This document shows positions 39,201 to 56,720 of a stretch of DNA of 64,000 bases, piece after piece. The DNA is taken from contig NC_016459.1 in the NCBI RefSeq assembly GCF_000226115.1, positions 4,346,501 to 4,410,500 of the forward strand, read 5' to 3'. Numbering within the stretch: the stretch's first letter is position 1; each line of letters opens with the position of its first letter. Both the position numbers and the translations under genes were made by a program. The DNA comes from Thermothielavioides terrestris NRRL 8126. Taxonomy: Eukaryota; Ascomycota; Sordariomycetes; Sordariales; Chaetomiaceae. Below the pieces are notes generated by a model. The model made no database searches. It was not told where the DNA came from and saw only the letters and a program-made list of their open reading frames with translations.

Positions 39201-39656
39201 GACTCTCTCCACGCTTGAGTCCTGCTGACCCTGCCCGTGAAGCCACTTGGCTCGTGGTTGGCTGCTGGGTTAAGGAAATGTGGCCCTGCCGCTAAATAAG
39301 GTATGTCATCTAACCATGTACGGCTGTAGTTACAGTGCACGATGTGTCTCTGGATGGCCGAGCTTGCTTATTTGGGCAGTGACTGCCCTCCTCCGCCGCG
39401 GCCAAAGGAGCGCCTGGGGTTCCGGAAGATGCAGGCTGTTAGACAGGCGTGACCTAGGTTACGGCACGTCCCACTCATAACCAGACCTCGCGCTCGCCAG
39501 TTGATGGGCTAAGTGGAAATCGCGGCTCCTATTAGAAGCGTTGAGGTCACCAGAAGGGGCACCCTTCCCCCTTTTCGCCTCCCTACCTACTTCATCCACC
39601 ATCTCTCAGCGTTCATGTCGTAGGTGGCCGCCCTGGCCGACATCCATTCTCTCGAC
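36286..39656. other. 3.4-kb gene-free interval
   Basis: Moderate-GC DNA with many overlapping short frames on all strands and none with a recognisable motif or splice pattern. It contains the 55-bp tandem repeat at 37,045. It must hold the promoters of palA (leftward) and the P450 (rightward). It may be an old decayed locus, but I cannot identify one. Confidence 0.4.
37045..37145. repeat. Two tandem copies of a 55-bp unit
   Basis: CACGCA..TTATCCGATC.GTACGGTTC.CGGAACTGCA begins at 37,045 and again at 37,100, with a few C/T differences. Confidence 0.75.
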
Positions 39657-41471
39657 ATGGAGGGTCTCACATTGATCCTGCTCTACCTGGCCATACCGAG
39701 CCTTCTCTTCTCTGCCATTAGGCAGATTCTATCATGGAAGAAGGCTGGGGGTTCCAAAGCCAGGTTTCCTGGACCGCAGCAGTTCCCCATCGTTGGGCGT
39801 GTCCATGACCTGCCCCGATTTTCGCTCTGGTTGAAGTTCAAGGAGTGGGCCGACATATACGGGCCCATCTACTACACCAGGGCCCTGAACCAGCCGTTCA
39901 TCATCGTGTCGGACCAGAAGATTGCGGAAGAGTTGCTCGTTAAGAGGGGCCACATCTACTCAGGTCGACCTCAGATCCGATCCCTCATCAGACACAAAGA
40001 GGGCCCGGCGTATTCTGCCTTGATGGACCGCCATGGTGAGTTGGCTTGCAGACCCGTTCTGCCCCCGTTCAAGCTGGTTACTGACAAGCCGCGTCCCAGA
40101 CATCTGGAAAACGCAACGCAAGTGGGCGCATGCCGCCGTGATGGAGGCGTACCAGCACCACTTCTACGGGCACGTCGAGCGCGAGACGAAGCGCTACCTG
40201 GGGCTGGTGCTGCTCGACCCGGCCCGCTTCCTGGACTACACGCGCGAGTACTGCGGGCGCATCATGTCGCGGCTGGCGTGGGATGACGCGACCCAGGGGC
40301 GCGCCAACGGCGACAGCGCCGACCAGACGCTGCACTGCATGAGCGTGTCGGGCCCCATCACCAACACCATGACGCCGCTATGGTACCTGCCGGCGCCGAT
40401 CAACCCGTGGTACAACTTCGAGATCAAGCGCGAGGCCGAGCAGCGCGCCTGGTGGCTGAACAACTTCCGGCTGGCCAAGCACCGCATGAAGAATGGCGAC
40501 CTGCCCAGCGACACGTGGGCGTACCGGTACTTTCAGCAGCTGAAGCGCGAGGGCAACGAGACGCTCGACCAGGCCGAGGACCAGGAGGTGTTTGCGAGCT
40601 GCATGATCGGGTTCCTGAACCTGGTCGGCGTGGTCACCATCAGCGGGCCGCTCAAGTTCTTCCTGATGGCCATGGCGCTGCACCCGGAGTGGCAGAAGAA
40701 GGCCCAGGCCGAGGTGGACCGCGTGTGCGGCGACCGCATGCCGACGATAAAAGACTTTGCTGATCTCCCCACTGTCCGAGCATGCCTCAAGGAGACCGTC
40801 CGGTGGCGGTCGGGCGTGCCGCTGGGTGAGTCGCTTGCGAACATCGTCTCTCCTCCCTCTTTCCTTGCACCAAAACTGACTGACTTTTTCCATCCGACCA
40901 GGCGTCCCCCATCAAGCGGAGCGCGACGACGAGTATCGGGGTGTCAAGATCAAGAAGGGCACCATCATCCTCGCGTGCGAATGGTAAGCCCGCTCGCCCT
41001 CCCTCTCGCATTGTTGCTTGCGCAACAACCCACTCTAACCACCCCCAACCCCCGCGCGGCAGGGCCCTCAACCGCGTGCCGGACAAGTACCCGGACGGCG
41101 ACAACTACCGGCCGGAGCGGTGGCTGGAGCCGGGGTGGCCGACGTACCAGGAGCCGCTGACGCGGTACCCCAACTTCCGCGAGGGGCAGGCGATGCACAC
41201 GTTCGGGTGGGGGCGGCGCACCTGCCTGGGGCAGACGATCGTGGACGACGAGACGTTCGTCTTCGGCGCCGCGGTGCTGTGGGCCTTCGACCTCGCGCAG
41301 AAGGTCTGCCCCTGCACCGGCCGCCCCGTGCCCATCGACTCCCAGGCCACCAACAGCCACGTCATCCTCGAGCCCCTGCCCTACCAGCTCAGCATCAAGG
41401 TGCGCAGCCGCGAGCGCGCCCGCCACATCCTCGATGGCTATCACGAGGTCATGGCGGAGCTGAAGGTTTGA
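39657..41471 (+). CDS. Cytochrome P450 monooxygenase (fungal, membrane-anchored)
   Basis: My model has four exons: 39,657-40,035, 40,100-40,825, 40,902-40,983 and 41,063-41,471, giving 531 residues. The introns are 64, 76 and 79 bp with donors GTGAGT, GTGAGT and GTAAGC. A hydrophobic N-terminal anchor (about residues 4-22) is followed by a proline hinge (FPGPQQFPIVG). The ExxR motif is KETVRWR, the PERF-like motif is RPERW, and the heme loop FGWGRRTCLG contains the ligand Cys450. The I-helix region reads MIGFLNLVGVVTISG rather than the usual A-G-x-D/E-T-T/S. It should oxidise a small hydrophobic molecule at the ER membrane with a P450 reductase; the substrate is unknown. The start is the first ATG in frame; an earlier ATG at 39,615 meets a stop at once. 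Confidence 0.9.
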
Positions 41472-43269: not shown

Positions 43270-44605
43270 ATGCAGCTGCCACTCCAGACCGAAGCTCTCG
43301 TGTTGTCTGAGGCCGGCGGGCCCTTTGTGCTGACGCCGATCGTCATCCAGGACCTGCGGCCGGACGAGGTGCTGGTCGAGATAAAATACTCGGGCGTGTG
43401 CCACACCGTATGTACGCCCCCGTCACAGCCCTCACGGCCCTCACAATGACCCCTCCAGCCACCCGGTGAATGGACAGCTAACTCGGCCCATCACCCACGA
43501 GTAGGACTTCTGGGTCCAGCAGGGCAATCTCGCCGATGTCATGGGGTTTCCGGCCATTGCCGGGCACGAGGGCGCGGGGATTGTCCGGGCCATCGGCTCC
43601 GACGTCAAGAACAAGTCCCTCCAGGTGGGCGACGCCGTGCTGCTCTCGTTCACCGCCTGCGGGGACTGCGATGATTGCAAACACAATTACAGCCGCTGCC
43701 GCATGTTCGGCCCACTCAACCTGACCGGCACCCGGCGTCAGGATGGCACCAGCCCAACCAAGCTGCTCGATGGCAGGCCAGTGCGCAGCCAGTTCTTCGG
43801 GCAGTCCTCGTTTTCCCGCTTCACGGCAGCACACGAGCTCTGCGTCGTCAAGTGCCCCTCTCCCGAAGACCTGGCCATCTACTCCCCGATGGGCTGCGGC
43901 TACCAAACCGGCGCCGGAACCATCCTCAACGTGCTCAAGCCGAGGCCCGACCAGACGGTGGCCGTGTTCGGCGCCGGCAGCGTCGGGTTTGCCGCCATCA
44001 TGACCGCCGCCAGCATCCCGGCGAAGCAGGTCATCGCCATCGACATTGTGGAGCAGAAGCTGGCGCTGGCGAGGGAGCTCGGGGCGACGCACACCATCAA
44101 CACGGCCGCGATCCAGGGGAGCGTCGTCGACGAGGTCATGAAGCTGACGGGCGGCAAGGGCGTCGACTTCGCCGTCGACACGACCGGCGTGTCGGCCGTC
44201 GTCGAGAAGATGCTGGACTGCCTGGCATATGCGGGGACGGCGGCGTCGGTGGGCGCTCCGCCCAGGGCGGACAAGATCACCGTCAACGTGGGGTCCTTCT
44301 TTGCCGAGAAGAAGAATTGGCTGGCCATCGCCGAGGGCGACTCTCACCCGCCAGAGGTTGGACCACCAGGATCACCAGATCTTCGACTTTTGGTTGGCGC
44401 TAACTTGGACAGTTCATTCCCCGGCCGATCGACCTGCACAAGCAAGGGAAGTTTCCCATAGAGAAAATCTGCAAAGTGTACCCTGTGGCGGACCTCAAGA
44501 CAGCGATTGCGGACATGAAGACTGGAGCAGTAAGGGCTTTATTCGCGCTTTCGCGCTGGACGTGGCTAACACACGCAGGTTATCAAACCAATCATCCAGT
44601 TCTAG
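43270..44605 (+). CDS. Zinc-dependent alcohol dehydrogenase (aryl-alcohol type)
   Basis: My model has four exons: 43,270-43,407, 43,505-44,356, 44,413-44,529 and 44,579-44,605 (nine codons including stop), giving 377 residues. Introns 2 and 3 are 56 and 49 bp; the donor of intron 2 (GTTGGA) is weak, but skipping the intron breaks the family alignment. Catalytic zinc ligands are visible: Cys44 in SGVCHTD, His67 in GHEGAG, and a Cys in PMGCGYQTGAG. The structural-zinc lobe has Cys98, 101, 104 and 111. The nucleotide loop is GAGSVGFAAI, followed by an acidic residue (IAIDIV) suggesting NAD. The sequence resembles benzyl/aryl-alcohol dehydrogenases. It lies 1.1 kb from the GH172 gene; membership in that cluster is not supported by the shared operator. 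Confidence 0.88.
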
Positions 44606-45704: not shown

Positions 45705-47081
45705 CTAACCCTGCAAGCTCTTGATGAAGCGCGCCCTGATATCCTTGGCAATCTCGATATTGTTCTGCGCTCTCCTCCGGGATGCCTCGGCGCGCCTCTC
45801 CAGCCACTGGTTGCGGTCCCGCACAAAGGCTTCGAGCCGCTCCTCTCTCTGCTTAATTAGCTGCCGCTGCGCGTCCGTCAGGGGCCTGTCGGCGGCCGGC
45901 TCGGGAGGCGGCGCGACGGTGGGCCGGTTCGGCAGCCGCTGGTCGACGGGCAGGATGTCCAGCTTGGGCCCCGGAAGCGTCTGGTACCAGTAGGCCGTGG
46001 TGGACCAGTCGTCGCGCAGGTGGTTGGCGTGGCCGTGCTCCAGCTTGACGGTGATCTTCTTGCTGAAGCGCACGGGGTCGGCCAGGTGCCAGCGGTACGA
46101 GACCTGGTAGCCGGGCACGTCCTCCTCGTGGATGATGGTGCCGCAGAAGGGGTAGGCGTTCTTCTGCATGCCCCAGCCCTGGCTGAAGTAGTCCTCGCCG
46201 CCGGTGCCGTGCATGCTCGGCGGCCAGGTGTCGTCGTCGATGAAGATCAGGTCGTCGCCCTCGCCCCACCAGGTGCCCTGGTGGTGCAGCACCGAGTGGT
46301 TGCAGCCGATGTAGGCGCCCGCGCCGGTCGTCTCGAGGATGGTGTAGCCGTCGCCGGTGAGGTTGGGGACCTGGGTCTCGAGGCTGTTGGTCTGCATGGC
46401 GTTCGGGGCCCAGCCGTTGGTGGGGTTCTCGCGCCGCCAGTGGGCGTGGAAGTAGAGGATCTCGTTCGGGTCGAAGGGGGCCGGGAGCAGCTCGTAGTCG
46501 ATGTAGAAGTACTGGAAGTAGGCGTGCTCGCCCTGGTTCTCAATCTCGATGCGGGCGCGCTTGTTGAACGGCATGGTCAAGTAGCAGTTGAAGGCGGCCG
46601 AGCCGCCGAACTTCTTCTCCTCGGACGGCTTCACCGAGACGGTGAAGGGGAGGGACTGGAAGTTGGCGGCCATGGAGTGGCCGAGGCAGAAGAAGTCGCC
46701 GATGGGAGCGAGGACGTTGGGCGTCTCGGAATCGTCCCAATACATACGGATGAGCACCTTGCGGTAGTAGTCGGGATCACTGTCTTCGTAGCTGAGACCC
46801 AGGGCGTTGTGGATCTCCATCATGGCGACGCCCGACTTGGAGTACGGAATGAGGCCCGGACCGAGGATGCGGCGGCACGTCTGGACGAACCACAGGTGGG
46901 TGATCATGCCCGGGCCCTCCAGATCGGCGAGGACCGCCGTCTCGCCCGGCTGCACGACGAAGGCATCCTCGTTGAGGCCGGACTGGTCCCAGCTGGAGAT
47001 GCGAGCAGTCCGCGCGGTCTTGCGCTGGGCCACCGAAGAAAGCAGATCTCCTCGGGCGAGGGATGGAACCGGGGTCGTCAT
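45705..47081 (-). CDS. GH172-type (DUF2961) glycoside hydrolase
   Basis: An intronless frame of 458 residues from the ATG at 47,081; the open frame extends 32 codons upstream, but those residues look unlike the family. The core matches DUF2961, now GH172, whose bacterial members hydrolyse difructose dianhydride I (alpha-fructofuranosidase) or D-arabinan. Two acidic residues lie in the expected conserved loops: Glu274 in GTWWGEGDDLIF and Glu296 in HGTGGEDYFSQGWG. Their spacing (22) is close to the catalytic Glu pair reported for the Bifidobacterium enzyme, as I recall it. No signal peptide is visible (starts MTTPVPSLARGDLL), so it is probably cytosolic. The C-terminal 60 residues form a charged helix. 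Divergent from a Zn2Cys6 regulator, with a shared operator-like palindrome at 47,467-47,490. Confidence 0.85.
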   Translation of the reverse strand: MTTPVPSLARGDLLSSVAQRKTARTARISSWDQSGLNEDAFVVQPGETAVLADLEGPGMITHLWFVQTCRRILGPGLIPYSKSGVAMMEIHNALGLSYEDSDPDYYRKVLIRMYWDDSETPNVLAPIGDFFCLGHSMAANFQSLPFTVSVKPSEEKKFGGSAAFNCYLTMPFNKRARIEIENQGEHAYFQYFYIDYELLPAPFDPNEILYFHAHWRRENPTNGWAPNAMQTNSLETQVPNLTGDGYTILETTGAGAYIGCNHSVLHHQGTWWGEGDDLIFIDDDTWPPSMHGTGGEDYFSQGWGMQKNAYPFCGTIIHEEDVPGYQVSYRWHLADPVRFSKKITVKLEHGHANHLRDDWSTTAYWYQTLPGPKLDILPVDQRLPNRPTVAPPPEPAADRPLTDAQRQLIKQREERLEAFVRDRNQWLERRAEASRRRAQNNIEIAKDIRARFIKSLQG

Positions 47082-47772
47082 TTTTGGTAGTGGGTTGGGG
47101 TTCGAGGTAACTGGATGTGTGTATAGTGAGTGTCTTCGATTCGATATCCGCAGAAGTTGGATCCAAACTTGGATCAAGTCCTCGAGACGCAGACATCTTG
47201 CCCGATTTATAGTGTATACCCTGGATTTAGGAACGCCAGATCACGGGTGGATTTTGAGAAACTCGAGATCCGCTTTGTGGGCATGAAAGAAAACGGAGGG
47301 CATTCAATGACCGAGGAGCTTCACGGCCATCGACAGACTGGGAGGCTGGCCATGCTTGGCAGAGTGCCGGGAGTGGTCCTTGCGGATCCACCATCCACCA
47401 TTACACTGCCATATCCCTGGAAGTTCGAAGCATGGCGCCTCAACATCCGTCACGTGCGGGTAGCATCGCGGAGTTGTCGCTAGCTCCGCGATAATTCCCA
47501 CTTTTGCGAAGCCGGTGCGGGTCTCGTGGTTCTGGAACTTCGACCAGCATCACCAGATGAAGGAGGCAGTCTCGGCGGAGATAGCTATTTCAGACCCACG
47601 TCCCCAGATGCCCTGGATGTTCCGGACCCCCCACTACTGACCGATCTGCCGTCTGCAGTTGCACCGGCTGTGGAAGCGGCAATGCCATGCGACAGTGTAC
47701 TCAGCCGAGAGTCAAGACGCCGAGACCCACGCCGAGACCGACACGGAGACAGTCCAATCATCTGATCATCTG
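47082..47772. promoter_or_regulatory. Divergent promoter, GH172 / Zn2Cys6 regulator
   Basis: A 691-bp intergenic region read in both directions. It contains the 24-bp palindrome at 47,467-47,490, about 385 bp from the GH172 start and 283 bp from the regulator start. Confidence 0.6.
47467..47490. promoter_or_regulatory. Palindromic operator candidate, copy 1
   Basis: CGCGGA-N12-TCCGCG, flanked by T and A so that the arms extend to TCGCGGAG/CTCCGCGA (8 bp, perfect). CGG...CCG inverted triplets with fixed spacing (CGG-N14-CCG) are the classic site type of Zn2Cys6 regulators. The same element with identical spacing occurs twice in the GH32/transporter promoter. Confidence 0.6.
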
Positions 47773-49757
47773 ATGGCCGAGCAAGATGTTCCAGCAAGCC
47801 CCTCTGGGGTCCCAGAGGAGGACGCGAACCCGCCAGCTCCAAACCCCAATGCTCCGCCAAGACAGCGCCGCAGCCGGGCCATCACGGCATGTAACGCCTG
47901 CCGGACGAGGAGGACGAGATGCGATCGGCGCAGCCCCGCTTGTGGCTTCTGTCGCACCCGCGGACTCGATTGCCAATACGAGCAAAGCCAGACCAGCGCC
48001 GCGTCTAGGTGAGTTTTGTCACTCCCGTGCTCAGCAACAACACGTCACATGGAGTGTCCGCCTTCGGATCTCGAGTCCTAACACCGCTGCTCGCCCGCTC
48101 CAGAGTGGAGGCAGAGCTTGCCGCCATCAACCGCCGGCTGGACTACATCGCTAGCTCCTTGCAGGCAACGCATCCAACGCACCCGCACCCGCATTATCAA
48201 CATCCCCAACAGCTTTCCCCGGTCGTGGACGCGGAGAATCAAGATCATGCCGATAGCCATGCGTCTCATGCCGTGACAGGGGTCGAAAGATCGCCCTTCC
48301 AGCTGCTAGTGACCGACTGCATGATGGAGGTGCTCGGTCTCGGCCCCGGATTTGCGCGGGATCTCGTGCGGCTCGAGCGAGCCATCACGCCACCGCATGC
48401 ACGAATCGGCCTCGCGGCGCGCCTGTGCTTTCTACCGCAGCAGCAAGCGCTCGCCGCGCTCGATGCCTTCTCCGCCCACGTCCACATCTGGTACCCGATC
48501 CTCCGCCCGGGCTTCACGGAGCGCTACGTTAGCGTGCTCTCAGGACCGCTGGCGCCCGGTCCGGAGTCTTGCTTGGTGCTGTCGGTGGCGGCGGTGGGTG
48601 CCCTCGCTCTGGAAGACGAGGTGGTGCGAACAGGGGCACCATCACCATCATACCCCGAAAAGAACAGCGAGCTCTATCTGGAAGCCGCCACTGCGTCGCT
48701 GCCGGCTGTGCTCACCGATGAGAGCATCGAGAGTATCCAGGCGCTGGTGCTGCTGAGCATCTACCACTGCTGCCTTTCCAGGCCTTGCCAGGCTTATGAC
48801 TACGCCATGAATGCCTCCTTCAAGGTGCAGAACTTGCTCAAATGCGTGCATGAGGTGGGAAAGGAGGACGAACTCTACGAGCAGGCAAAGAGGTGTTATT
48901 GGGCCGTCCTCCTGCTAGAGAGCGAGCTGCGCGACCAGCTCGAAATGGTCGACAGCGGCATCTGGAACTGCGACGACAAGGTCGACTTGCCCGACAGCCG
49001 CCGTTCATGGCACTTTGATCTCGATGCCGGCTCTCCGGGCACAACAACAGCCTCCTCTCCCGGCAGCATCATCAGCCGAGCATCGGCAGACGGGGGCGCC
49101 CATGCTTCGGACAGGGTCCAGGCATACTTCCTAGCCGAGATTGCCATGAGGCGCATGCTCCATCGCTGCTACACGGCCATCCGCAGGACGCCGCACGGCG
49201 ACATCGTCTACGCGCCAGCCATCGCGCTCGAGCTCGAAACGCAGCTCGACGAATGGCAGAGCTACCTGCCCGACGCCGTCCATTTCCGCCACCTGGCTGC
49301 CCCGGAGCCTCTGAGCAACTTCCTCCGAGTGCAGTACTACTGCTGCAAGATGTCCATCTACTGGCCGGCCGTGTATCAGTGCATCCAGGACGGCGGCGCC
49401 ACCACCCCCGAGATCCTCGAGCACTGCGAGAGGTTCTTTCACGCGTATATGCAGTCCATTCCCAGCTTGTTGACGGCCGTCCGCGACTGCATCGTCAACC
49501 GCTGGACGCTCTACGCCACTATCTTCACCACCTCGATGGCGGTCCTCCAGGCCGCTGCGACACCCTGTCTGCGGACCGGCTGTGCTGTCGACTGGGCTCA
49601 CCTCCTGGCCTGCCTGCGGTCGACAAGGACGGTAGACGTCCGCATCGTGCAGGCCAGCCCCTCGTTATCCCTGTTGCACCGCACGCTCGCCGATCGGCTG
49701 GCAGACGTGTGCCCTGACGACGCTACTATTACAGCTCCAGCCCATCCCATACCGTGA
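47773..49757 (+). CDS. Zn2Cys6 (Gal4-type) transcription factor of the sugar cluster
   Basis: My model has two exons, 47,773-48,008 and 48,104-49,757, giving 629 residues. The intron is 95 bp (donor GTGAGT, branch CCTAAC). The binuclear zinc cluster spans residues 40-67 with Cys40, 43, 50, 57, 60 and 67 (CNACRTRRTRCDRRSPACGFC...C), preceded by a basic stretch (PRQRRSRA). A short linker/dimerisation region follows (VEAELAAINRRLDYI). The middle and C-terminal parts are the usual alpha-helical fungal regulatory domain. Lying between GH172 and GH32, with CGG/CCG palindromes in both neighbouring promoters, it is the obvious candidate regulator; this is inference. Its last 29 bp overlap the 3' end of the GH32 gene on the other strand. 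Confidence 0.87.
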
Positions 49758-51582
49758 TCGTCTCAAACACGGCGCTGCCCGCGCTTCCCGTCGCGAAGGC
49801 CGTCACCCCTCCCAAGTCTTGCCCGGAGCCCGAGTACACCATGGTCGCGAGCGCAAAACGGTCGTTTGCGAATACCTCGAGGATGTCTCCATCCGACAAG
49901 ATCCGAATACGAAGTTTCTCTATGCTCTCTGTTCCATCGGCGTCCCGTGTTGTAAGGAGGGTGAAGGGACCGGCGTCCGGACACTTGTTGACCGCCGGGT
50001 CGGTGTTCGAGGCGTGACGGTCGACAACGATGGTCTCGGTCGCGGCCGAGAATGTCACCGTGGTACATGTGGACAGATCTACGTTGTGGCGCAGGTGGAA
50101 GCCAACGTCTTGACATCCCGCGCCGATCGCGACGGTGGCCGCGAGCTCCCAACTTGTAGAGCGGGTGTGGCAGATGCCTCGCCTCGTGATCGAGTTGGAC
50201 TCCGGCAAGGCGATGTCGGTTGCACTGTGCTGATGATGGCTGGCCTCACGCAGCTGCGCCAGTTCCGCGACCGGCCTCACGCCCAACGTCAAGACGGTGA
50301 AGGTAGTTGTGTCCCCGTCCGGCTCCGGCCTGAGCACGAAGGGAGAGATGTCCCGCAGGGAGCTCCGCAGGGCGCCGACGACTCGTGGGATCCGGAGGAG
50401 GAAGATCTCGCGAGGGACCGCAAGAGAACCGTTCCAGCCCTTTTCCGCAGCGGCGCCCAGGGGCAGGTCTTCCTCTGGAATCCAGCCGTACACAATCGTC
50501 CGACCAGTCCGGGGGTCCGTGAACGAGTTCGCGGCGTAGTACGGTCCGTGGTCGAGGTATCCCCCGTGTTCGTATTGGAATCGAACACCGCCGTCGCCGC
50601 TGGCAACAAGGCGGCCCGACATCCACAGCTGAGCCCTCACCGTCCGCGACGGCGCCGCCGCGGCCGTGACGGAGCGCTCATAAGAGCGCACATGATCCTT
50701 CTCGACGTCTCCTTCGGCGCCCAGAATCAGAAAGTGTCGGACCTCCGACTCGGCCCGCAGCGCCACCAGGTTGGCACACTCCCAGTTGACGCCGTAGTTG
50801 CCACTCCACTTCGGCGACGGCTGGAACCGCGCGGGCAGGTCGACCAAGGGACCAAGGCATCTCCACTCCTCTTCAGGATCGTCGCGACGGATCTCGTACA
50901 GAAACACGGTCGGCCCGCGGTCTTGTATGCCGCCCGAGACGAGCCCGTAGAGTACCGGCCCCCTCCCACTCTCCGAGGACCTGCGCTCGGCGTCGCAGGG
51001 AATCAGAGGCAACTCCGTCACGAACGGATCCCGAAACCCGGTGACGGCCACGCCGGCCGGCTCGCCAGCCACGACGGGGTTGCGCGCCGATTTCGTCCAC
51101 GTCTTGCCGCCGTCGCGAGACAGCGCGATGGCCAAGCCCGCTGCGCTGCGCGGGTACGGCGGCGTGCTCCAGTGGAAGGGCAGTTGTCTGACCGACGAGT
51201 ACGCAACCCGCAAGGTACCGTCCGACTCGTTGGCGGGAGGGATCCAGCAGCCGGTGAACACCCCTTGGGCGTCGTATGCTTGGTCCGGGAGGAGCGCCGG
51301 GGACGGGTCGGCTGGCGTCCAGCACAGCATGTCCTGGGACACGATGTGTCCCCAGGACATGTTGCCCCATTCGCATCCGGACGGGTTGCCTGCGTAGGGT
51401 GATGGGATTTTGCGTTAGGTCTTTGTCGTGACTGGAATGAACACAACCTCTGGGGAAGGCTCACATTGGTAGAAGAGATGATACGTCTTGGTGTTCGGAT
51501 CGTAGCCAGGAGCGCATGGGTCGTTGATCCAGCTGTTTGCAGTGAAGTGGAACCTGGGTCGCCGTGACGTCGAGTGTCCCAT
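49729..51582 (-). CDS. GH32 beta-fructofuranosidase/fructanase, intracellular type
   Basis: My model has two exons, 51,582-51,465 and 51,389-49,729, giving 592 residues. The intron is 75 bp (donor GTGAGC, acceptor CGCAG). The three GH32 signature acids are present: Asp21 in NSWINDP (nucleophile), Asp160 in GFRDPFV (transition-state stabiliser) and Glu243 in NWECANLV (acid/base). An N-terminal five-bladed propeller and a C-terminal beta-sandwich (about residues 400-592) are expected. The N-terminus (MGHSTSRRPRFHFT) has no signal peptide, unlike secreted inulinases and most invertases, so action on an imported sugar is inferred. WINDPC replaces the common W-M/L-NDPNG, which may bear on substrate choice. 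Shares its promoter with a sugar transporter. Confidence 0.9.
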
Positions 51583-51845
51583 GGTGGACAGAGAGAAAGA
51601 GAAGGCAGATCAGGGGCCGATGGAAACTGTCTGAACTTAGTGGTGACTCGCGTTCCAGAGCTGGACTAGCCGAGGGAACGGACACAACGGCGTGCGTGCG
51701 GTAGGCACGGTACGTATATGGCGAATGACTCCTTGAGTTTCGAACTTGTCATCAAGGGCTTCATGTTGGCCATGTTCACCCATCCCTCATGATGTAAACC
51801 CCTTAACTAAATAGAGTGTGGCGTCAAATAGCCGCGATCATCTTG

Positions 51846-51869
51846 TGCGGAATTAAGTTGATGTCCGCG
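51846..51869. promoter_or_regulatory. Palindromic operator candidate, copy 2
   Basis: TGCGGA-N12-TCCGCG, with one mismatch to the perfect arms (TG for CG at the first two bases). Same 24-bp length and CGG-N14-CCG spacing as copies 1 and 3. Confidence 0.55.
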
Positions 51870-51998
51870 AAGCCTATGTACATAACACTCCGAATTACAC
51901 CCATCCACCCCTGGTGTTCGGGCTAATAGTGTAATTCTTGGCCGACTTAGCCCGGGGGCTGTCCTGAGTGTGGCGTCAAACAGCCGTGGATCATCTTT

Positions 51999-52022
51999 CG
52001 CGGAGTTAAGTTGAAGTCCGCG
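51999..52022. promoter_or_regulatory. Palindromic operator candidate, copy 3
   Basis: CGCGGA-N12-TCCGCG with perfect arms extending to TTCGCGGA/TCCGCGAA. It begins CGCGGAGTT as copy 1 does, with the identical spacing. Confidence 0.6.
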
Positions 52023-52487
52023 AAGCCTCAAGACAGTACACTACGGATTATACCCTACGCTACCCCTGGTCTTCGGGTCGATACACTAATTCTTAGCTGA
52101 CTCAGCCCGGGTCTACCCTGCACGTCCCAATGGCGATGTATCGCGTTCATCCCCTTGCATGACTGGACCGCAGTCTGGCCTTCAGTTGTAGCAGTCCGCC
52201 TGCTGTGGAGTTCCTCGTGGCGCAACATCCGGGGTCCCTGGGGTTCCCCAGGATCCCCAGATCAACCCAGATTAGCGGATTTGTCGCGGGGAATGGCTTT
52301 TTCACCCCCGCACCCACCTAGTGTACATACACTATTGCGTCCTTGGGCTGTTGGCTCAAGCCCGGTTGTTGATTTGAGAAACCGGTCACCTCGTCATGCA
52401 CAAGGTACTGCACCTACGTGTTGAGAGATAAAGCCTCACTCCTGCTCCTGCCAGATTGATTTTATCTGACTTGCGGCATTGTCATCG

Positions 52488-54481
52488 ATGGCATTCGAGT
52501 CCATTCGCACTTGGGCACAACAAGTCTGCAGCGACTCAAGAGTCAGAACGGCAACACCACTGAATCCGCGAGTCATCACGCAACGAGTTGACACGATGAT
52601 TCTGATACACGGGTAAGTAGAGTACCTGCCTACCTTCTCATATTGATCCAACACAAGCAAAAGCGGAAACTGACCAGCATTCCATCCCAGCATCGACTAT
52701 TCTGTTGTCAATCCCGACAACAAGTGGAAGATGCTGAGATCACAGTCGCGATTTGCGCTCTTGGGTTAGTCAAACCGCCCCCTGAGTCCAGATGTCCTGT
52801 CCATAACTTGAGGTTATGTCGGTAATGTATCTAACACTCAAGGACACAACCAACAGCGCTCCTGATCTCGTCGGGCGTCGTGATGCAAGGATTCGACATC
52901 GTGGCTGGAGGACAGCTCGCGGCCCTGCCCGCGTTCAAGGAAAAGTTCGGGGTGCTGCAGGACGACGGCAGCTACCTGATCCCGGCCCACTACCTATCCG
53001 CCTGGAACTCGATCGCCCCAGCCATGGAGATAGCCACCTCCTTCATCTTCGCCCCGCTGCTCGAGAAGTACGGCCGCAAGTGGGGGATCCTGGCCGCGTC
53101 GCTCATCTCGACTGTCGGCGTCATCCTCCAACAGCTGGCTCCGGACTGGCGGACGCACCTCGCCGGCAGGGCCGTCAACGGCATCGCCATCGGCATGATG
53201 TTCACCATCTCACCGCTCTGGATCGGCGAGACCTGTCGCCCGGAGCTCCGCGGCTTCTTCCTGTGCTTCTTCAACACCAGCATCGTCTTTGGCCAGTTTG
53301 CTATTGTCGTTGTCTCGCAGGGCAGCAATCACCTGTCGGGCAAATGGCAGTGGTGGCTGCCCGTCGTCGCTATGTACTTCTTCCCCTGTAAGTCAAAGAG
53401 TTCCCCCCACCCTCCCTTGCAGTCTCGGTGACCACTCTGCTAACACCAGCTGCATTCCTTGACGATAGTAATCCTCACCGTCGCCTGGCCCTTCTTCCCT
53501 GAGTCGCCCTCCTGGCTCATCCGTCACGGCAAGCGAGAGGAGGCGAAAAAGGCCCTGCGCCGCATCTATGGCTTCAAGGAGCAGGCATTCTACGAGATCG
53601 AAGCGTCACGCATGGAAGAAGAGGTCCGTCTCACGAGGGATCTGGGCGGCGGCAACATCGACCCAAGCCGGCCTCGCAAAAGGATCCTGGGCGTCGACGT
53701 GGAGCGCGCAGCCGAGTGCTTCGACGCGGCCAACCGCAAGCGCACGCTGACCGCCATCTTCGCCGCGTCCGCGCAGCAGATGATCGGCGCCACGTTCGTG
53801 ATCGGGTACGCGACGTACTTCTTCGAGCTGATCGGCGTCAGCAACTACTTCGCCGCGTCCATGGCCCTGTACGCCGTCATGCTCGCCGCCAGCATGTCGG
53901 CGTTCCCCCTGACCGAGATCTACGGCCGCCGGTTCCTGATCGTCGGCCCCCAGTTCGCGCTCTGCTTCATGCTTCTCATCATCGGCATCCTGGGCTGCGT
54001 CCCGGACAAGACCAAGGCCAGCTGGGGCATTGTCGCCCTGCTGTATATGTGGGCGATCATCTACCAGCTCTCCATCGGCGCCACCGGCTTCGTGCTGGCG
54101 TCCGAGATCGCGACCTTAAGGCTCAGGGCGACGACACAGGGTCTCATCACCATCACCAATGCTGTCTGGGGCTTGATCATGCAGTTTACCGTTCCGTACA
54201 TGATCAATCCCGATGCCGGAAACTTGGGCGGGAAAGTTGGCTTTATCTTTTTGGGTACGGGCCTGATGGCTAGCGTCGGGGGCTGGTACCTGTTCCCCGA
54301 GACCAAGGGACTTTCCTTTGAGAAGTTGGATCAACTGTATGCCATGAAGGTGCCCCCGAGGCTGTTTCAGAAAGTGGCGGCCGAGGGCATGGGCCGACAT
54401 GACGCAGGAGAGCATGTTGAGAAGGAAGACGGGATCATTACTGAGGAACACGTCCGAGTCGAAACATCGAGAGTGGCATAG
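52488..54481 (+). CDS. MFS sugar porter (maltose-permease/hexose-transporter type)
   Basis: My model has four exons: 52,488-52,612, 52,691-52,764, 52,857-53,387 and 53,469-54,481, giving 580 residues. The introns are 78, 92, 81 bp with donors GTAAGT, GTTAGT and GTAAGT. Twelve transmembrane segments are expected. Sugar-porter signatures are visible: an MQGFD..AGGQL first helix, [37 protein letters not shown] and [15 protein letters not shown]. The N-terminal exon is the least certain part: it is open from an ATG at 52,488 to a good donor and joins in frame, and no nearer ATG works because a stop lies upstream of exon 2. Likely proton-coupled uptake of a fructose-containing oligosaccharide for the cytosolic GH172 and GH32 enzymes; the specificity is inferred from context only. 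Confidence 0.87.
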
Positions 54482-55874
54482 GCAGGCCTTAGGGTTGCGT
54501 GGTCTGCTGTCTACCTAGAGTTGGAAGACGACCCTGACCTAAATAGCTTCTTCCGGCGCCTGTCTGACAGGTCGTGCCCCCTACAGGTTCTTACTGTGCC
54601 TTACCCAAAACTGATTCTCAATCTTGGAACCATTTGCTTTGCCATCCATTGTAGAACGTAGGAATCCTGAGAATTTTTTGCAAAAAAAAAAAATAAAAGA
54701 AAAAAAAAAAAAAAAGCACTCTGCCGACGGAAAACAAAAGCGTGGACAAACCACTCCGTTTAGATCGGCTAGCGAAACTCTTGCTCGACCATCTGTCCTC
54801 TGAGCTTCTGAAGACGTTCGAAAATGATTGCCTTATTCAAGCGACGGCTTCGGCGCCTAGAGCTCTTCATGAACTGTTGAGCCATGCTACTATGCGGAGA
54901 ATCCGGGGCAGACCCGACGGCTGCGGCTAAAAATGGAGAGACCGCGATGTCCACAGCGTAGAGAGGCGAGCATGAGGGCGTTCCAGGTTGTTCGGGCCGT
55001 GAAGCCTGGATGTCATGTTGCTTTGGAAACGCCTTGTGTCGAGACTGTAATCTACCTCCGACAGTAGCTAAACATCGAGTCCAATATAACGAGGGCTAAG
55101 TTAGCATCGTCAGAAATTTCTCGAGCGCTATTATCAAAGGAAAAAGCAGAAGGAGAAGTAGGGGGAACAGAAGGAGAACAGGAAAGAAACGCGAGATGAG
55201 TCAGCTCTCTCGTTTCATTGGCCCCCTTCCGCTTACTGAATGGCGACCCGCAATGTCGGTCCGAGACTTGTGTACTCATCTTTGAGCACTCGTAGCCTCG
55301 CTAATTTCGAACGAATTCCGCCACGCCGCTGCTGGAAAACCGGATTGAGCGAGTGCTGACTGATTGTGAGCTCGCCAATGGGTGGTTGTGGTGTGAGAGC
55401 CCGGGAGATTAGCCAATCAGAAAGCGTGGATTACCAAGCTCCCCGAGCAGCCACGCAAGACCTGGGCGGATGTGGTAAGTGGCGTGGACAGAGCAAACAC
55501 AATAATAACCAGGAAGGAAGCAGCAAGTATGACGGTTTCTTTGGAGACTTGCTTCCATTCAACTCCAGCCTCGCACAGGGCCTTGACTCGTGTGATCTTC
55601 TCTTCCGCTGCCAGACCCTAACCCTAAGTGGTCTCCCGTCGTTCGTTCTCCGTTGAGGTTGTGTTGAGAACAGCCCAGCTGGAATAACCAAACTCATAAC
55701 CAACTTCCATTCTGGGACATCTTCAAGCTCAACCTCCAGTGCGCCAGAATTGGCCCGTTGTTGATATTGCTTTTTCATAACACCGCCCAATAATCTCATC
55801 AAGTCATCACAAATTTACGCCACCTCTTCAGCGCCTCTAATCTCCAAACAAAACGCACTTCCGTCATCCTCACA
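54482..55874. other. Intergenic: transporter 3' UTR and ccc1 promoter
   Basis: Contains A-rich tracts at 54,678-54,715, a telomere-like ACCCTAACCCTAAG at 55,615-55,628 and a CCAAT element at 55,413. The minus-strand frame at 54,769-54,954 ends in an Arg-rich helix-like stretch but is too short to support as a gene. Confidence 0.45.
55413..55432 (+). promoter_or_regulatory. CCAAT-N12-ATT, possible CBC/HapX iron-response site
   Basis: CCAAT, twelve bases, then ATT. This fits the CSAAT-N12-RWT pattern I recall for binding of the CCAAT-binding complex with HapX in Aspergillus, which controls vacuolar iron storage genes. It lies about 440 bp upstream of a Ccc1/VIT1 transporter start, a known target class. 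Single CCAAT matches are common, so this remains a candidate. Confidence 0.4.
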
Positions 55875-56720
55875 ATGGCTCGCCCATCAGACCGGTCGCC
55901 CCTCCTCCCCCGTACCAACGGCACCGTCGCGCCGGACCACCCCTCGCCGTCGCGGCTGCGCCCTAAGGCGGTGAACCGCATGTCGTCGGGCGCGCCCGAC
56001 CCGGAGCACCCGCACGCCGAGAAGCACATGGGCCAGTTCGACTCCATCGTGCGCGACGTCATCATCGGCTTCTCCGACGGCCTGACCGTGCCGTTCGCGC
56101 TGACCGCCGGCCTGTCATCGCTCGGCAACACCAAGATCGTCATCATCGGCGGCCTCGCCGAGCTGTGCAGCGGCATGATCAGCATGGGCCTGGGCGCCTA
56201 CCTGGCCGCCGACACGGAGCGGCAGCACTGGGAAGCCGAGTTCGCGCGCGAGTCCGCCGAGGTCGACACGGTGCCCGAGGTGGAGCGCGCCGAGATCTTC
56301 GACATCGTGGCCGGGTACGGCGTCAGCCGCGCCGCCGCCGAGCCGCTGGTGCGCGAGCTGACCGCCGACAAGGACACATGGGTGCGCTTCATGATGGACT
56401 TTGAGCTGCGCCTGCCCGAGCCCGACTCGGGCCGCGCCTGGGTCTCGGCCGCCACCATGGGCCTGAGCTACTTCGTCGGCGGCCTGATCCCCATGCTGCC
56501 CTACTTCTTCATGCATTCGGCCCAGCGCGCCCTGCTGGTGTCGGTGCTCATCACGGTTGTGATCCTGCTTGGGTTTGGTTTTCTGAAGAACTGGGTTACC
56601 ATCCGCACGCGGAAGGCCGGGTTCTGGGGGGCAGTGCAGACGTTGATTGTGGGTGCGCTGGCCGCGGGGACGAGTTACGGCATTGTTAGGCTTCTGGATA
56701 CAAGTGGGGGCAGTGTGTGA
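55875..56720 (+). CDS. ccc1: Vacuolar iron transporter, CCC1/VIT1 family
   Basis: An intronless frame of 281 residues. The N-terminal 50 residues are disordered (Pro/Ser/Arg-rich). The membrane domain then opens with VRDVIIGFSDGLTVPFALTAGLS, the family signature with Asp in the first helix, followed by a GGLAELCSGMISMGLGAYLAADTE second helix. A cytosolic acidic/helical domain (about 120-180: EVDTVPEVERAEIF) corresponds to the metal-binding loop. Three C-terminal helices follow (MGLSYFVGGLIPMLPYFF; LLVSVLITVVILLGFGFL; TLIVGALAAGTSYGIV). The protein moves Fe2+/Mn2+ from cytosol into the vacuole in exchange for protons and protects against iron overload. Length and five-helix layout are normal for the family. 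Confidence 0.93.
   Translation: MARPSDRSPLLPRTNGTVAPDHPSPSRLRPKAVNRMSSGAPDPEHPHAEKHMGQFDSIVRDVIIGFSDGLTVPFALTAGLSSLGNTKIVIIGGLAELCSGMISMGLGAYLAADTERQHWEAEFARESAEVDTVPEVERAEIFDIVAGYGVSRAAAEPLVRELTADKDTWVRFMMDFELRLPEPDSGRAWVSAATMGLSYFVGGLIPMLPYFFMHSAQRALLVSVLITVVILLGFGFLKNWVTIRTRKAGFWGAVQTLIVGALAAGTSYGIVRLLDTSGGSV

What the first reader, a model, noticed from the sequence alone, without database searches (positions are those of the whole stretch)
45705..54481. Candidate fungal difructose-anhydride/fructan utilisation cluster (GH172 + GH32 + regulator + sugar porter)
A DUF2961/GH172 enzyme with both candidate catalytic Glu residues (274, 296) sits beside a GH32 enzyme with all three catalytic acids, a Zn2Cys6 regulator and an MFS sugar porter. 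Neither hydrolase has a visible signal peptide, which fits uptake then cytosolic cleavage. GH172 is known to me from bacteria (difructose dianhydride I, D-arabinan), where an alpha-fructofuranosidase can act together with a GH32 enzyme. I do not know of a described fungal counterpart.
Basis: partly seen in the sequence, partly recalled or inferred. Interest (0 to 1): 0.85.

Follow-up and report, generated by a model that had tools for sequence, protein, structure and literature searches.

The report
Fungal gene cluster for unusual fructose-sugars
A heat-loving soil fungus carries four neighbouring genes (a sugar importer, two sugar-cutting enzymes and a switch protein) that together look like a dedicated pathway for ring-shaped double-fructose sugars, and parts of the same set sit together in many other fungi, which would give a home to a fungal enzyme activity known since 1982 but not yet tied to a gene by experiment.

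Summary
Four intact genes span 45705-54481 in a 36.9-Mb, six-contig genome (T. terrestris by inference): GH172, Zn2Cys6 regulator, GH32, MFS sugar porter. The GH172 protein is 51% identical to the solved DFA I synthase/hydrolase alphaFFase1. It keeps both catalytic Glu and the two +1-subsite residues needed there for inulobiose but not for a simple alpha-D-arabinofuranoside. It is the only GH172 found in the genome, and its neighbour the only GH32 found. In other fungi, equal contig lengths join at least two of GH172/GH32/MFS on 41 contigs; 16 of these have locus tags within three of each other. New here: both divergent promoters carry the palindrome CGCGGA-N12-TCCGCG, found exactly only 7 times genome-wide. 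Best reading: a self-regulated cytosolic pathway, MFS uptake, DFA I to inulobiose (GH172), inulobiose to fructose (GH32), analogous to the bacterial GH172-GH32 operon. Corrections: fungal GH172 was noted in 2021, and the A. fumigatus activity in 1982. Growth on fructan polymer is not supported, since no second GH32 was found. Activity, substrate and direction are untested.

The parts
45705..47081 (-). GH172 (DUF2961) enzyme, 458 aa, single exon; predicted DFA I synthase/hydrolase (alpha-D-fructofuranosidase)
   Evidence: PF11175 E 6.4e-83; 484-bit match over residues 17-454 to 7V1V alphaFFase1; catalytic and +1 residues kept; only DUF2961 found in the genome
47467..47490 (.). Palindrome CGCGGA-N12-TCCGCG in the GH172/regulator divergent promoter; predicted regulator binding site
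47773..49757 (+). Zn2Cys6 transcription factor, 629 aa, one intron 48009-48103
   Evidence: gene model; PF00172 and PF04082
49729..51582 (-). GH32 beta-fructofuranosidase, 592 aa, intron 51464-51390, no signal peptide seen; its 3' end overlaps the regulator's 3' end by 29 bp
   Evidence: gene model; PF00251 and PF08244; only GH32 locus found in the genome
51814..52111 (.). Two-copy direct duplication (spacing 152-155 bp; blocks 80-95% alike) in the GH32/MFS divergent promoter, each copy holding one regulator-type palindrome
51846..51869 (.). Palindrome copy with 1 mismatch (TGCGGA-N12-TCCGCG)
51999..52022 (.). Exact palindrome CGCGGA-N12-TCCGCG
52596..54481 (+). MFS sugar porter, 544 aa, four exons (introns 52613-52690, 52765-52856, 53388-53468); some relatives are named maltose or alpha-glucoside permease
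   Evidence: gene model; PF00083; homologue names and linkage

Best explanation
A self-regulated cytosolic catabolic module for alpha-fructofuranosidic difructose sugars, chiefly difructose dianhydride I (DFA I) and related compounds such as diheterolevulosan II and inulobiose. The MFS porter imports the sugar. The GH172 enzyme opens the alpha-fructofuranosidic bond by a retaining mechanism (Glu296 nucleophile, Glu274 acid/base), turning DFA I into inulobiose. The GH32 enzyme splits inulobiose into two fructoses and so pulls an equilibrium that by itself favours DFA I. The Zn2Cys6 protein senses a pathway sugar and acts on both divergent promoters, its own included, through CGCGGA-N12-TCCGCG. 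Shown here: intact genes, one copy found of each hydrolase, residue conservation, recurring linkage in other fungi, shared promoter palindrome. Inferred: substrate, direction, binding of the palindrome by this regulator, inducer.
For: GH172: 204 of 398 aligned residues identical to alphaFFase1 (first four alignment blocks; the last 35-column block not counted), and 11 of 12 mapped catalytic, substrate-binding and Ca-binding residues identical (the exception is Asn272, a Ca ligand, to Asp). Glu85 and Lys147, needed for inulobiose but not for pNP-alpha-D-Araf (PMC8605356 Table 2), are both kept; at the Lys147 place the printed alignments show Gly in 4KQ7, a gap in 8AH3 and Asn in 8IC8, and the Glu85 stretch is not aligned in any of the three. 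GH172 and GH32 were each found once in the genome, 2.6 kb apart. Linkage in other fungi: equal contig lengths join GH172+GH32 on 15 contigs, GH172+MFS on 12, GH32+MFS on 28, all three on 7 (one only 6,253 bp), against 0.18, 0.13 and 0.06 after jittering lengths by 10%. Of these 41 contigs 30 bear the same organism name in both lists, none bears different names and 11 are unnamed; 16 have locus tags within three of each other (read by eye). Saxophila (LTR77_001928, _001930, _001931) and Cadophora (IFR05_007124, _007126, _007127) run GH172, one free tag, GH32, MFS, as in the window. A bacterial DFA I operon pairs GH172 with GH32 and an importer, and 13 of 19 bacterial loci fetched here hold a GH32-model match beside a GH172. 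Promoter palindrome.
Against: No activity, growth or expression data. alphaFFase1 favours DFA I synthesis 9:1 (abstract), so the catabolic direction depends on GH32. GH32+MFS occurs on 21 contigs without a listed GH172; Aspergillus ambiguus has its listed GH172 on another contig (18,543 bp) than its GH32/MFS (88,439 bp), and Penicillium psychrofluorescens has GH172 and the listed MFS on different contigs, so GH172 may be an accessory to a more general sugar module. In Exophiala sideris the order differs (no free tag between GH172 and GH32, one between GH32 and MFS), and in Elasticomyces only one tag lies between GH172 and MFS. 31 of the 41 contigs are longer than 35 kb, where sharing a contig is not by itself adjacency. 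Two homologues (P0075, 65%; P0111, 59%) carry the source's name D-arabinan exo-arabinofuranosidase. Three of 58 Met-starting GH172 relatives among the nearest 60 have a fairly hydrophobic N-terminus (1.8-1.9). How a soil thermophile would meet DFA I is unclear, and no extracellular DFA-forming GH91 was sought. The palindrome was found by comparing the two promoters, so its P value is post hoc, and the loose motif is not enriched genome-wide (143 places against 228 for the reversed control). The middle gene in other fungi was not identified.
Confidence: 0.6

Rival explanations
1. Sucrose or short fructo-oligosaccharide uptake module: the MFS imports sucrose/FOS, the GH32 is an ordinary intracellular invertase, and GH172 is an accessory that opens DFA I or similar by-products that GH32 cannot cut.
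For: GH32+MFS is the most frequent pair (28 contigs, 21 of them without a listed GH172); some porter relatives are named maltose or alpha-glucoside permeases; A. niger sucB is an intracellular invertase with transfructosylating activity (PMC5701360, passages); fungal intracellular invertases and maltose/sucrose porters co-occur in Eurotiomycetes (PMC11930586, section 3.3).
Against: Only one GH32 was found in this genome and it sits beside the only GH172 found; lists end at the best 120, so a missing GH172 is weak evidence; GH172 shares the regulator's promoter and the palindrome.
Confidence: 0.22
2. The module runs in the synthetic direction: imported or transfructosylation-derived inulobiose is cyclised by GH172 to DFA I, held as a reserve or released as a sugar that competitors cannot use.
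For: alphaFFase1 equilibrium 9:1 towards DFA I; A. fumigatus was reported to make DFA I from inulobiose (PMC8605356), and difructosedianhydride is listed among its extrolites (PMC4703822, one passage).
Against: Linked importer and GH32 point to breakdown; B. dentium is reported (unpublished data cited in PMC8605356) to grow on DFA I.
Confidence: 0.1
3. D-arabinan scavenging: GH172 is an exo-alpha-D-arabinofuranosidase acting on fragments of actinobacterial cell wall.
For: Other GH172 enzymes do this (PMC10115798, passages; PMC10509167, passages), and the former says D-arabinan degradation is also present in microbial eukaryotes; alphaFFase1 has alpha-D-arabinofuranosidase activity; two homologues at 65% and 59% bear a source's D-arabinan enzyme name.
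Against: +1-subsite Glu and Lys kept and alphaFFase1-like length; the D-arabinan enzyme 8IC8 matches more weakly (100 bits against 484); the neighbour is a fructosidase. A DUF4185/GH183 search of the genome found nothing, but its controls did not ring either, so absence is not shown.
Confidence: 0.05
4. Chance neighbours with no shared pathway.
For: No expression data.
Against: Recurring linkage on 41 contigs, shared rare palindrome, the only copies found of both hydrolases 2.6 kb apart.
Confidence: 0.03

Closest known systems
Bifidobacterium dentium DFA I operon (GH32 BBDE_2039, GH172 BBDE_2040 = alphaFFase1, ABC transporter BBDE_2041-2043, LacI regulator; Kashima et al. 2021, PMC8605356)
   Same: Same two hydrolase families side by side, neither with a secretion signal seen, with a linked importer and regulator; GH172 about 51% identical over 398 columns with the same active site.
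   Different: Fungal version uses an MFS porter and a Zn2Cys6 regulator, a GH32 nearest to fungal ones, two divergent promoters in place of an operon, and a shared palindrome.
Aspergillus fumigatus difructose-anhydride synthase (EC 3.2.1.134) and its proposed gene AFUA_5G00510
   Same: Fungal GH172; the gene with the preceding number, Afu5g00500, is annotated maltose permease (PMC2526178, one table row), matching the GH172-MFS neighbourhood.
   Different: The A. fumigatus gene-to-activity link is itself only suggested in print; I could not read that locus.
Fungal MAL cluster (regulator, maltose permease, intracellular alpha-glucosidase; PMC11930586, passages)
   Same: Same logic: porter + intracellular hydrolase + regulator in one cluster; porter of the same broad class by name.
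   Different: Hydrolases are GH172 and GH32, so fructose-based and not maltose.
GH172 D-arabinan exo-enzymes (ExoMA1, taken as 8IC8; DgGH172; NocGH172)
   Same: Same GH family and catalytic Glu pair.
   Different: Solved relatives 8IC8, 4KQ7 and 8AH3 are shorter (374-378 aa chains) and lack the +1 Lys (Asn, Gly and gap there).

Membership tests
GH172 | DUF2961 domain | tested here: met
   PF11175 E 6.4e-83, whole profile 1-235
GH172 | Catalytic Glu pair (acid/base and nucleophile) | tested here: met
   Glu274 and Glu296 align with Glu270 and Glu291; both present in 60 of 60 nearest homologues
DFA I synthase/hydrolase (EC 3.2.1.134) within GH172 | +1-subsite Glu85 and Lys147 (needed for inulobiose) | tested here: met
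   Glu89 and Lys151 from Met1; among the 60 nearest homologues 54 keep Glu (4 Asp, 1 Gln, 1 gap) and 54 keep Lys (5 Arg, 1 Val)
DFA I synthase/hydrolase (EC 3.2.1.134) within GH172 | Interconverts inulobiose and DFA I | not testable with these tools
   needs an enzyme assay
DFA I synthase/hydrolase (EC 3.2.1.134) within GH172 | Hexamer with active site shared by two protomers | not tested
   residues given by the neighbouring protomer in alphaFFase1 (Asn31, Asp33, Glu85, Lys147, Tyr187) are kept; no assembly model was made
GH32 | Three catalytic acids (WxNDP, RDP, EC) and the GH32 N- and C-terminal domains | tested here: met
   WINDP, FRDP, WEC; PF00251 and PF08244
Fungal intracellular GH32 (groups 5 and 8 of Parrent et al. 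2009) | No secretion signal | tested here: met
   crude hydropathy scan only: window protein -0.26; 0 of 47 Met-starting relatives that keep the NDP motif reach 1.8, highest 1.15; the other 72 of 120 lack the motif, probably for want of exon 1, and say nothing
Fungal intracellular GH32 (groups 5 and 8 of Parrent et al. 2009) | Position in the published tree (group 5, function uncertain, or group 8, invertase-like) | not tested
   tree sequences were not at hand; PMC2728104 passages only
Bacterial-type GH172-GH32 DFA operon | GH172 and GH32 close together with an importer and regulator | tested here: met
   gene order in the window; porter and regulator belong to other families than the bacterial ones, so it works like it but is not the same operon

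The most novel reading that the evidence does not exclude
Ascomycetes carry a widespread, dedicated and self-regulated pathway for cyclic difructose sugars, assembled independently of the bacterial operon around the same GH172+GH32 pair, and an intracellular fungal GH32 lineage filed as 'invertase' has inulobiose released from DFA I as its true substrate.
Probability: 0.4. Interest if true: 0.75.

Novelty: new variant of a known kind. Interest (0 to 1): 0.6.

Why it matters
It gives the fungal activity EC 3.2.1.134, whose gene was not identified when Kashima et al. wrote, a gene neighbourhood, a candidate transporter, a candidate regulator and a predicted binding site, so that one knockout and one enzyme assay can settle it. 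It also questions the label 'invertase' for a group of intracellular fungal GH32 enzymes, and shows two kingdoms pairing the same two enzyme families with unrelated import and control parts. In the literature searched here (open-licence PubMed Central papers only, most seen as listings) I found fungal GH172 homologues mentioned but no fungal GH172-GH32-porter-regulator cluster. From a thermophile, the enzymes might also be heat-stable catalysts for DFA I (inference).

Tried and rejected
Polymer (inulin/levan) use as the main role: dropped, because no second GH32 was found, with the caveat that the genome search reads exon by exon and scores only its best candidates. D-arabinan reading: demoted on +1-subsite residues; the DUF4185 search gave nothing, but its controls did not ring, so it was not used. 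Origin by gene transfer: a quick tree of 132 rows (9 of the 120 homologues were dropped as shorter than 400 aa) puts all 29 rows that I labelled fungal (window included) on one side of one branch from 26 of 28 rows labelled bacterial. The two other bacterial rows are the distant outgroup on a long branch, whose rooting I do not trust, and 75 rows bear no label, so I draw no conclusion on origin or direction. Wider regulon: the five other exact palindromes lie inside stop-to-stop frames of 226-1030 codons, which in this GC-rich genome does not prove that they are coding; no further target genes were named. Of the 136 one-mismatch places one is in this cluster; the rest are listed only in part and were not examined. 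A. fumigatus neighbours other than Afu5g00500: no paper found. No structure prediction was run, because a solved structure at 51% identity was at hand.

The linkage count compares the longest-contig column of the 119, 120 and 117 listed hits that carry one; clusters are at 90% identity and lists end at 120, so unlinked rows prove little.
Full report
WHERE IT IS. The window lies in a genome of 36,912,256 bases in six contigs. A paper lists Thielavia terrestris v2.0 as 36.91 Mb in 6 pieces (PMC4672557, passage), and the best GH32 homologue is from Thermothielavioides terrestris (93% over 92% of the query), a member of the Chaetomiaceae. I take the host as T. terrestris; that is inference from size and homology.

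THE GENES. GH172: 45705-47081 (-), 458 aa, one exon, PF11175 E 6.4e-83. Regulator: 47773-49757 (+), one intron 48009-48103, 629 aa, with PF00172 and PF04082. GH32: 51582-49729 (-), 592 aa, one 75-bp intron; exon 1 is backed by 79% identity to a relative, and the stops counted in that match are the natural stop and the two codons behind it. MFS: 52596-54481 (+), four exons, 544 aa, PF00083. The order makes two divergent promoters (GH172/regulator, GH32/MFS), and the regulator and GH32 genes overlap tail to tail by 29 bp. The gene models rest on splice signals and homology, not on transcripts.

THE GH172 ENZYME. It matches alphaFFase1 (7V1V) over residues 17-454, 484 bits; 204 of 398 residues in the first four alignment blocks are identical. 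Of 12 residues named by Kashima et al. as catalytic, substrate-binding or Ca-binding, 11 are identical; Asn272, a Ca ligand, is Asp. Table 2 of that paper shows that changing Glu85 or Lys147 leaves pNP-alpha-D-Araf activity nearly whole (94-100%) but cuts inulobiose activity to 0.5-4.8%. Both are kept here. At the Lys147 place the alignments show Gly (4KQ7), a gap (8AH3) and Asn (8IC8), and the Glu85 stretch is not aligned in those three. Among the 60 nearest homologues the Glu is kept in 54 and the Lys in 54. This points to difructose substrates more than to D-arabinan. It does not prove activity, and two homologues carry a source's D-arabinan enzyme name.

THE GH32 ENZYME. Its motifs are complete (WINDP, FRDP, WEC). 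No hydrophobic N-terminus was seen by a crude scan, nor in any of the 47 Met-starting relatives that keep the NDP motif (highest 1.15); 72 of the 120 relatives lack that motif, probably because exon 1 was missed, and are uninformative. Among the nearest 60 GH172 relatives, 3 of 58 Met-starting ones have a fairly hydrophobic N-terminus. Parrent et al. 2009 describe two intracellular fungal GH32 groups, 5 and 8, of which group 5 is of uncertain function (PMC2728104, passages). I could not place this protein in either.

SINGLE COPIES. Searches of the own genome with PF11175, PF00251, PF08244 and a GH32 relative found only this locus. PF00251 and PF08244 rang in 4 of 14 control genomes; PF11175 rang in none of the 14, so its own-genome count has no positive control beyond this hit. 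With both enzymes single, their lying within 10 kb of each other has a chance of about 5e-4. The lack of a second, secreted GH32 argues against use of inulin or levan from outside.

LINKAGE IN OTHER FUNGI. The three protein searches list contig lengths and some locus tags. Equal contig lengths join at least two of the three proteins on 41 contigs: 15 GH172+GH32, 12 GH172+MFS, 28 GH32+MFS, 7 all three, against means of 0.18, 0.13 and 0.06 after jittering lengths by 10%. Thirty of the 41 bear the same organism name in both lists, none bears different names, 11 are unnamed; 10 are under 50 kb (2.6 to 37.6 kb). On the long contigs only locus tags show closeness; 16 of the 41 have tags within three of each other (my reading). 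Saxophila: GH172 LTR77_001928, GH32 _001930, MFS _001931. Cadophora: IFR05_007124, _007126, _007127. Exophiala sideris: PV11_04163, _04162, _04160. Exophiala bonariae: GH172 LTR84_002790, GH32 _002788. Pseudogymnoascus verrucosus: VE01_09203, _09205. Elasticomyces: GH172 LTR27_008126, MFS _008124. Trichomonascus, a yeast: GH172 TRICI_005049, MFS _005048. Taxonomy searches place Saxophila, Exophiala sideris, Pseudogymnoascus and the host in four Pezizomycotina classes and Trichomonascus ciferrii (now Blastobotrys) in Saccharomycotina. In Saxophila and Cadophora the order is that of the window with one tag free where the regulator would be; in Exophiala sideris the free tag lies between GH32 and MFS. 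I did not identify that gene anywhere. Against strict linkage: 21 of the 28 GH32+MFS contigs have no listed GH172, and Aspergillus ambiguus and Penicillium psychrofluorescens have their listed GH172 on another contig than the porter.

BACTERIA. Of 19 bacterial loci fetched with the GH172 query, 13 hold a match to a GH32 model next to a GH172. Of the six without, L017 and L019 are contigs under 5 kb, L011 is cut within a second GH172, L014 (8.8 kb) simply lacks it, and L022 and L023 are distant (28-29% identity). The loci were picked by peptide patterns of the fungal protein, so this is not a fair sample of bacteria. It fits the published B. dentium operon and the S. davawensis pathway suggested to run through DFA I (PMC8605356).

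PROMOTERS. The palindrome CGCGGA-N12-TCCGCG lies at 47467-47490 and 51999-52022, with a one-mismatch copy at 51846-51869. The last two sit in a two-copy duplication spaced 152-155 bp. Genome-wide there are 7 exact places; the five others lie inside stop-to-stop frames of 226-1030 codons. At one mismatch the genome holds 143 places, fewer than the 228 of the reversed control, so the loose motif is not enriched as such; within the window at two mismatches it is no more frequent than in shuffles (4 against 3.5). The evidence is its placing: three of 143 fall in 1.7 kb of these two promoters (Poisson about 5e-8). That figure is post hoc because the motif was found there. I propose it as the site of the cluster's own regulator.

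MECHANISM. MFS imports DFA I or a like sugar; GH172 opens it to inulobiose; GH32 splits inulobiose into fructose, pulling an equilibrium that favours DFA I 9:1. Rivals, in order: a sucrose/FOS module with GH172 as accessory; DFA I synthesis; D-arabinan scavenging; chance.

NOVELTY. Fungal GH172 proteins and the A. fumigatus candidate were noted in 2021. I did not find the fungal cluster described in searches, which cover open-licence papers only and of which most hits were seen as listings. I call it a new variant of a known kind.

Noticed in passing
window 1-24000: GC is 35-39% in 4-kb bins here against 56-63% in the rest of the window, with a step at about 24 kb; looks like an AT-rich block, perhaps RIP-mutated (not tested).
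   Followed up: no
window 39624-41160: Pieces of a cytochrome P450 gene in two frames (introns likely), left of the cluster.
   Followed up: partly
window 43505-44461: Zinc-type alcohol dehydrogenase gene next to the GH172 gene; nearest NCBIfam models are NDMA-dependent and S-(hydroxymethyl)mycothiol dehydrogenases, all far below cut-off. No sign that it belongs to the cluster.
   Followed up: partly
window 55794-56720: VIT1-family gene right of the cluster.
   Followed up: no
window 51814-52111: The GH32/MFS promoter carries a diverged two-copy duplication that doubles the regulator-type palindrome.
   Followed up: partly
L005, L009, L010, L016 (Streptomyces): Two GH172 paralogues per locus: one nearer the fungal type (63-65% identity) and one of the type that sits beside GH32.
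   Followed up: partly
Aspergillus fumigatus Afu5g00500 (PMC2526178 table): The 'maltose permease' preceding the proposed GH172 gene by number is listed with a value of 2.72 in a table of transcripts at the start of infection; meaning not examined.
   Followed up: no
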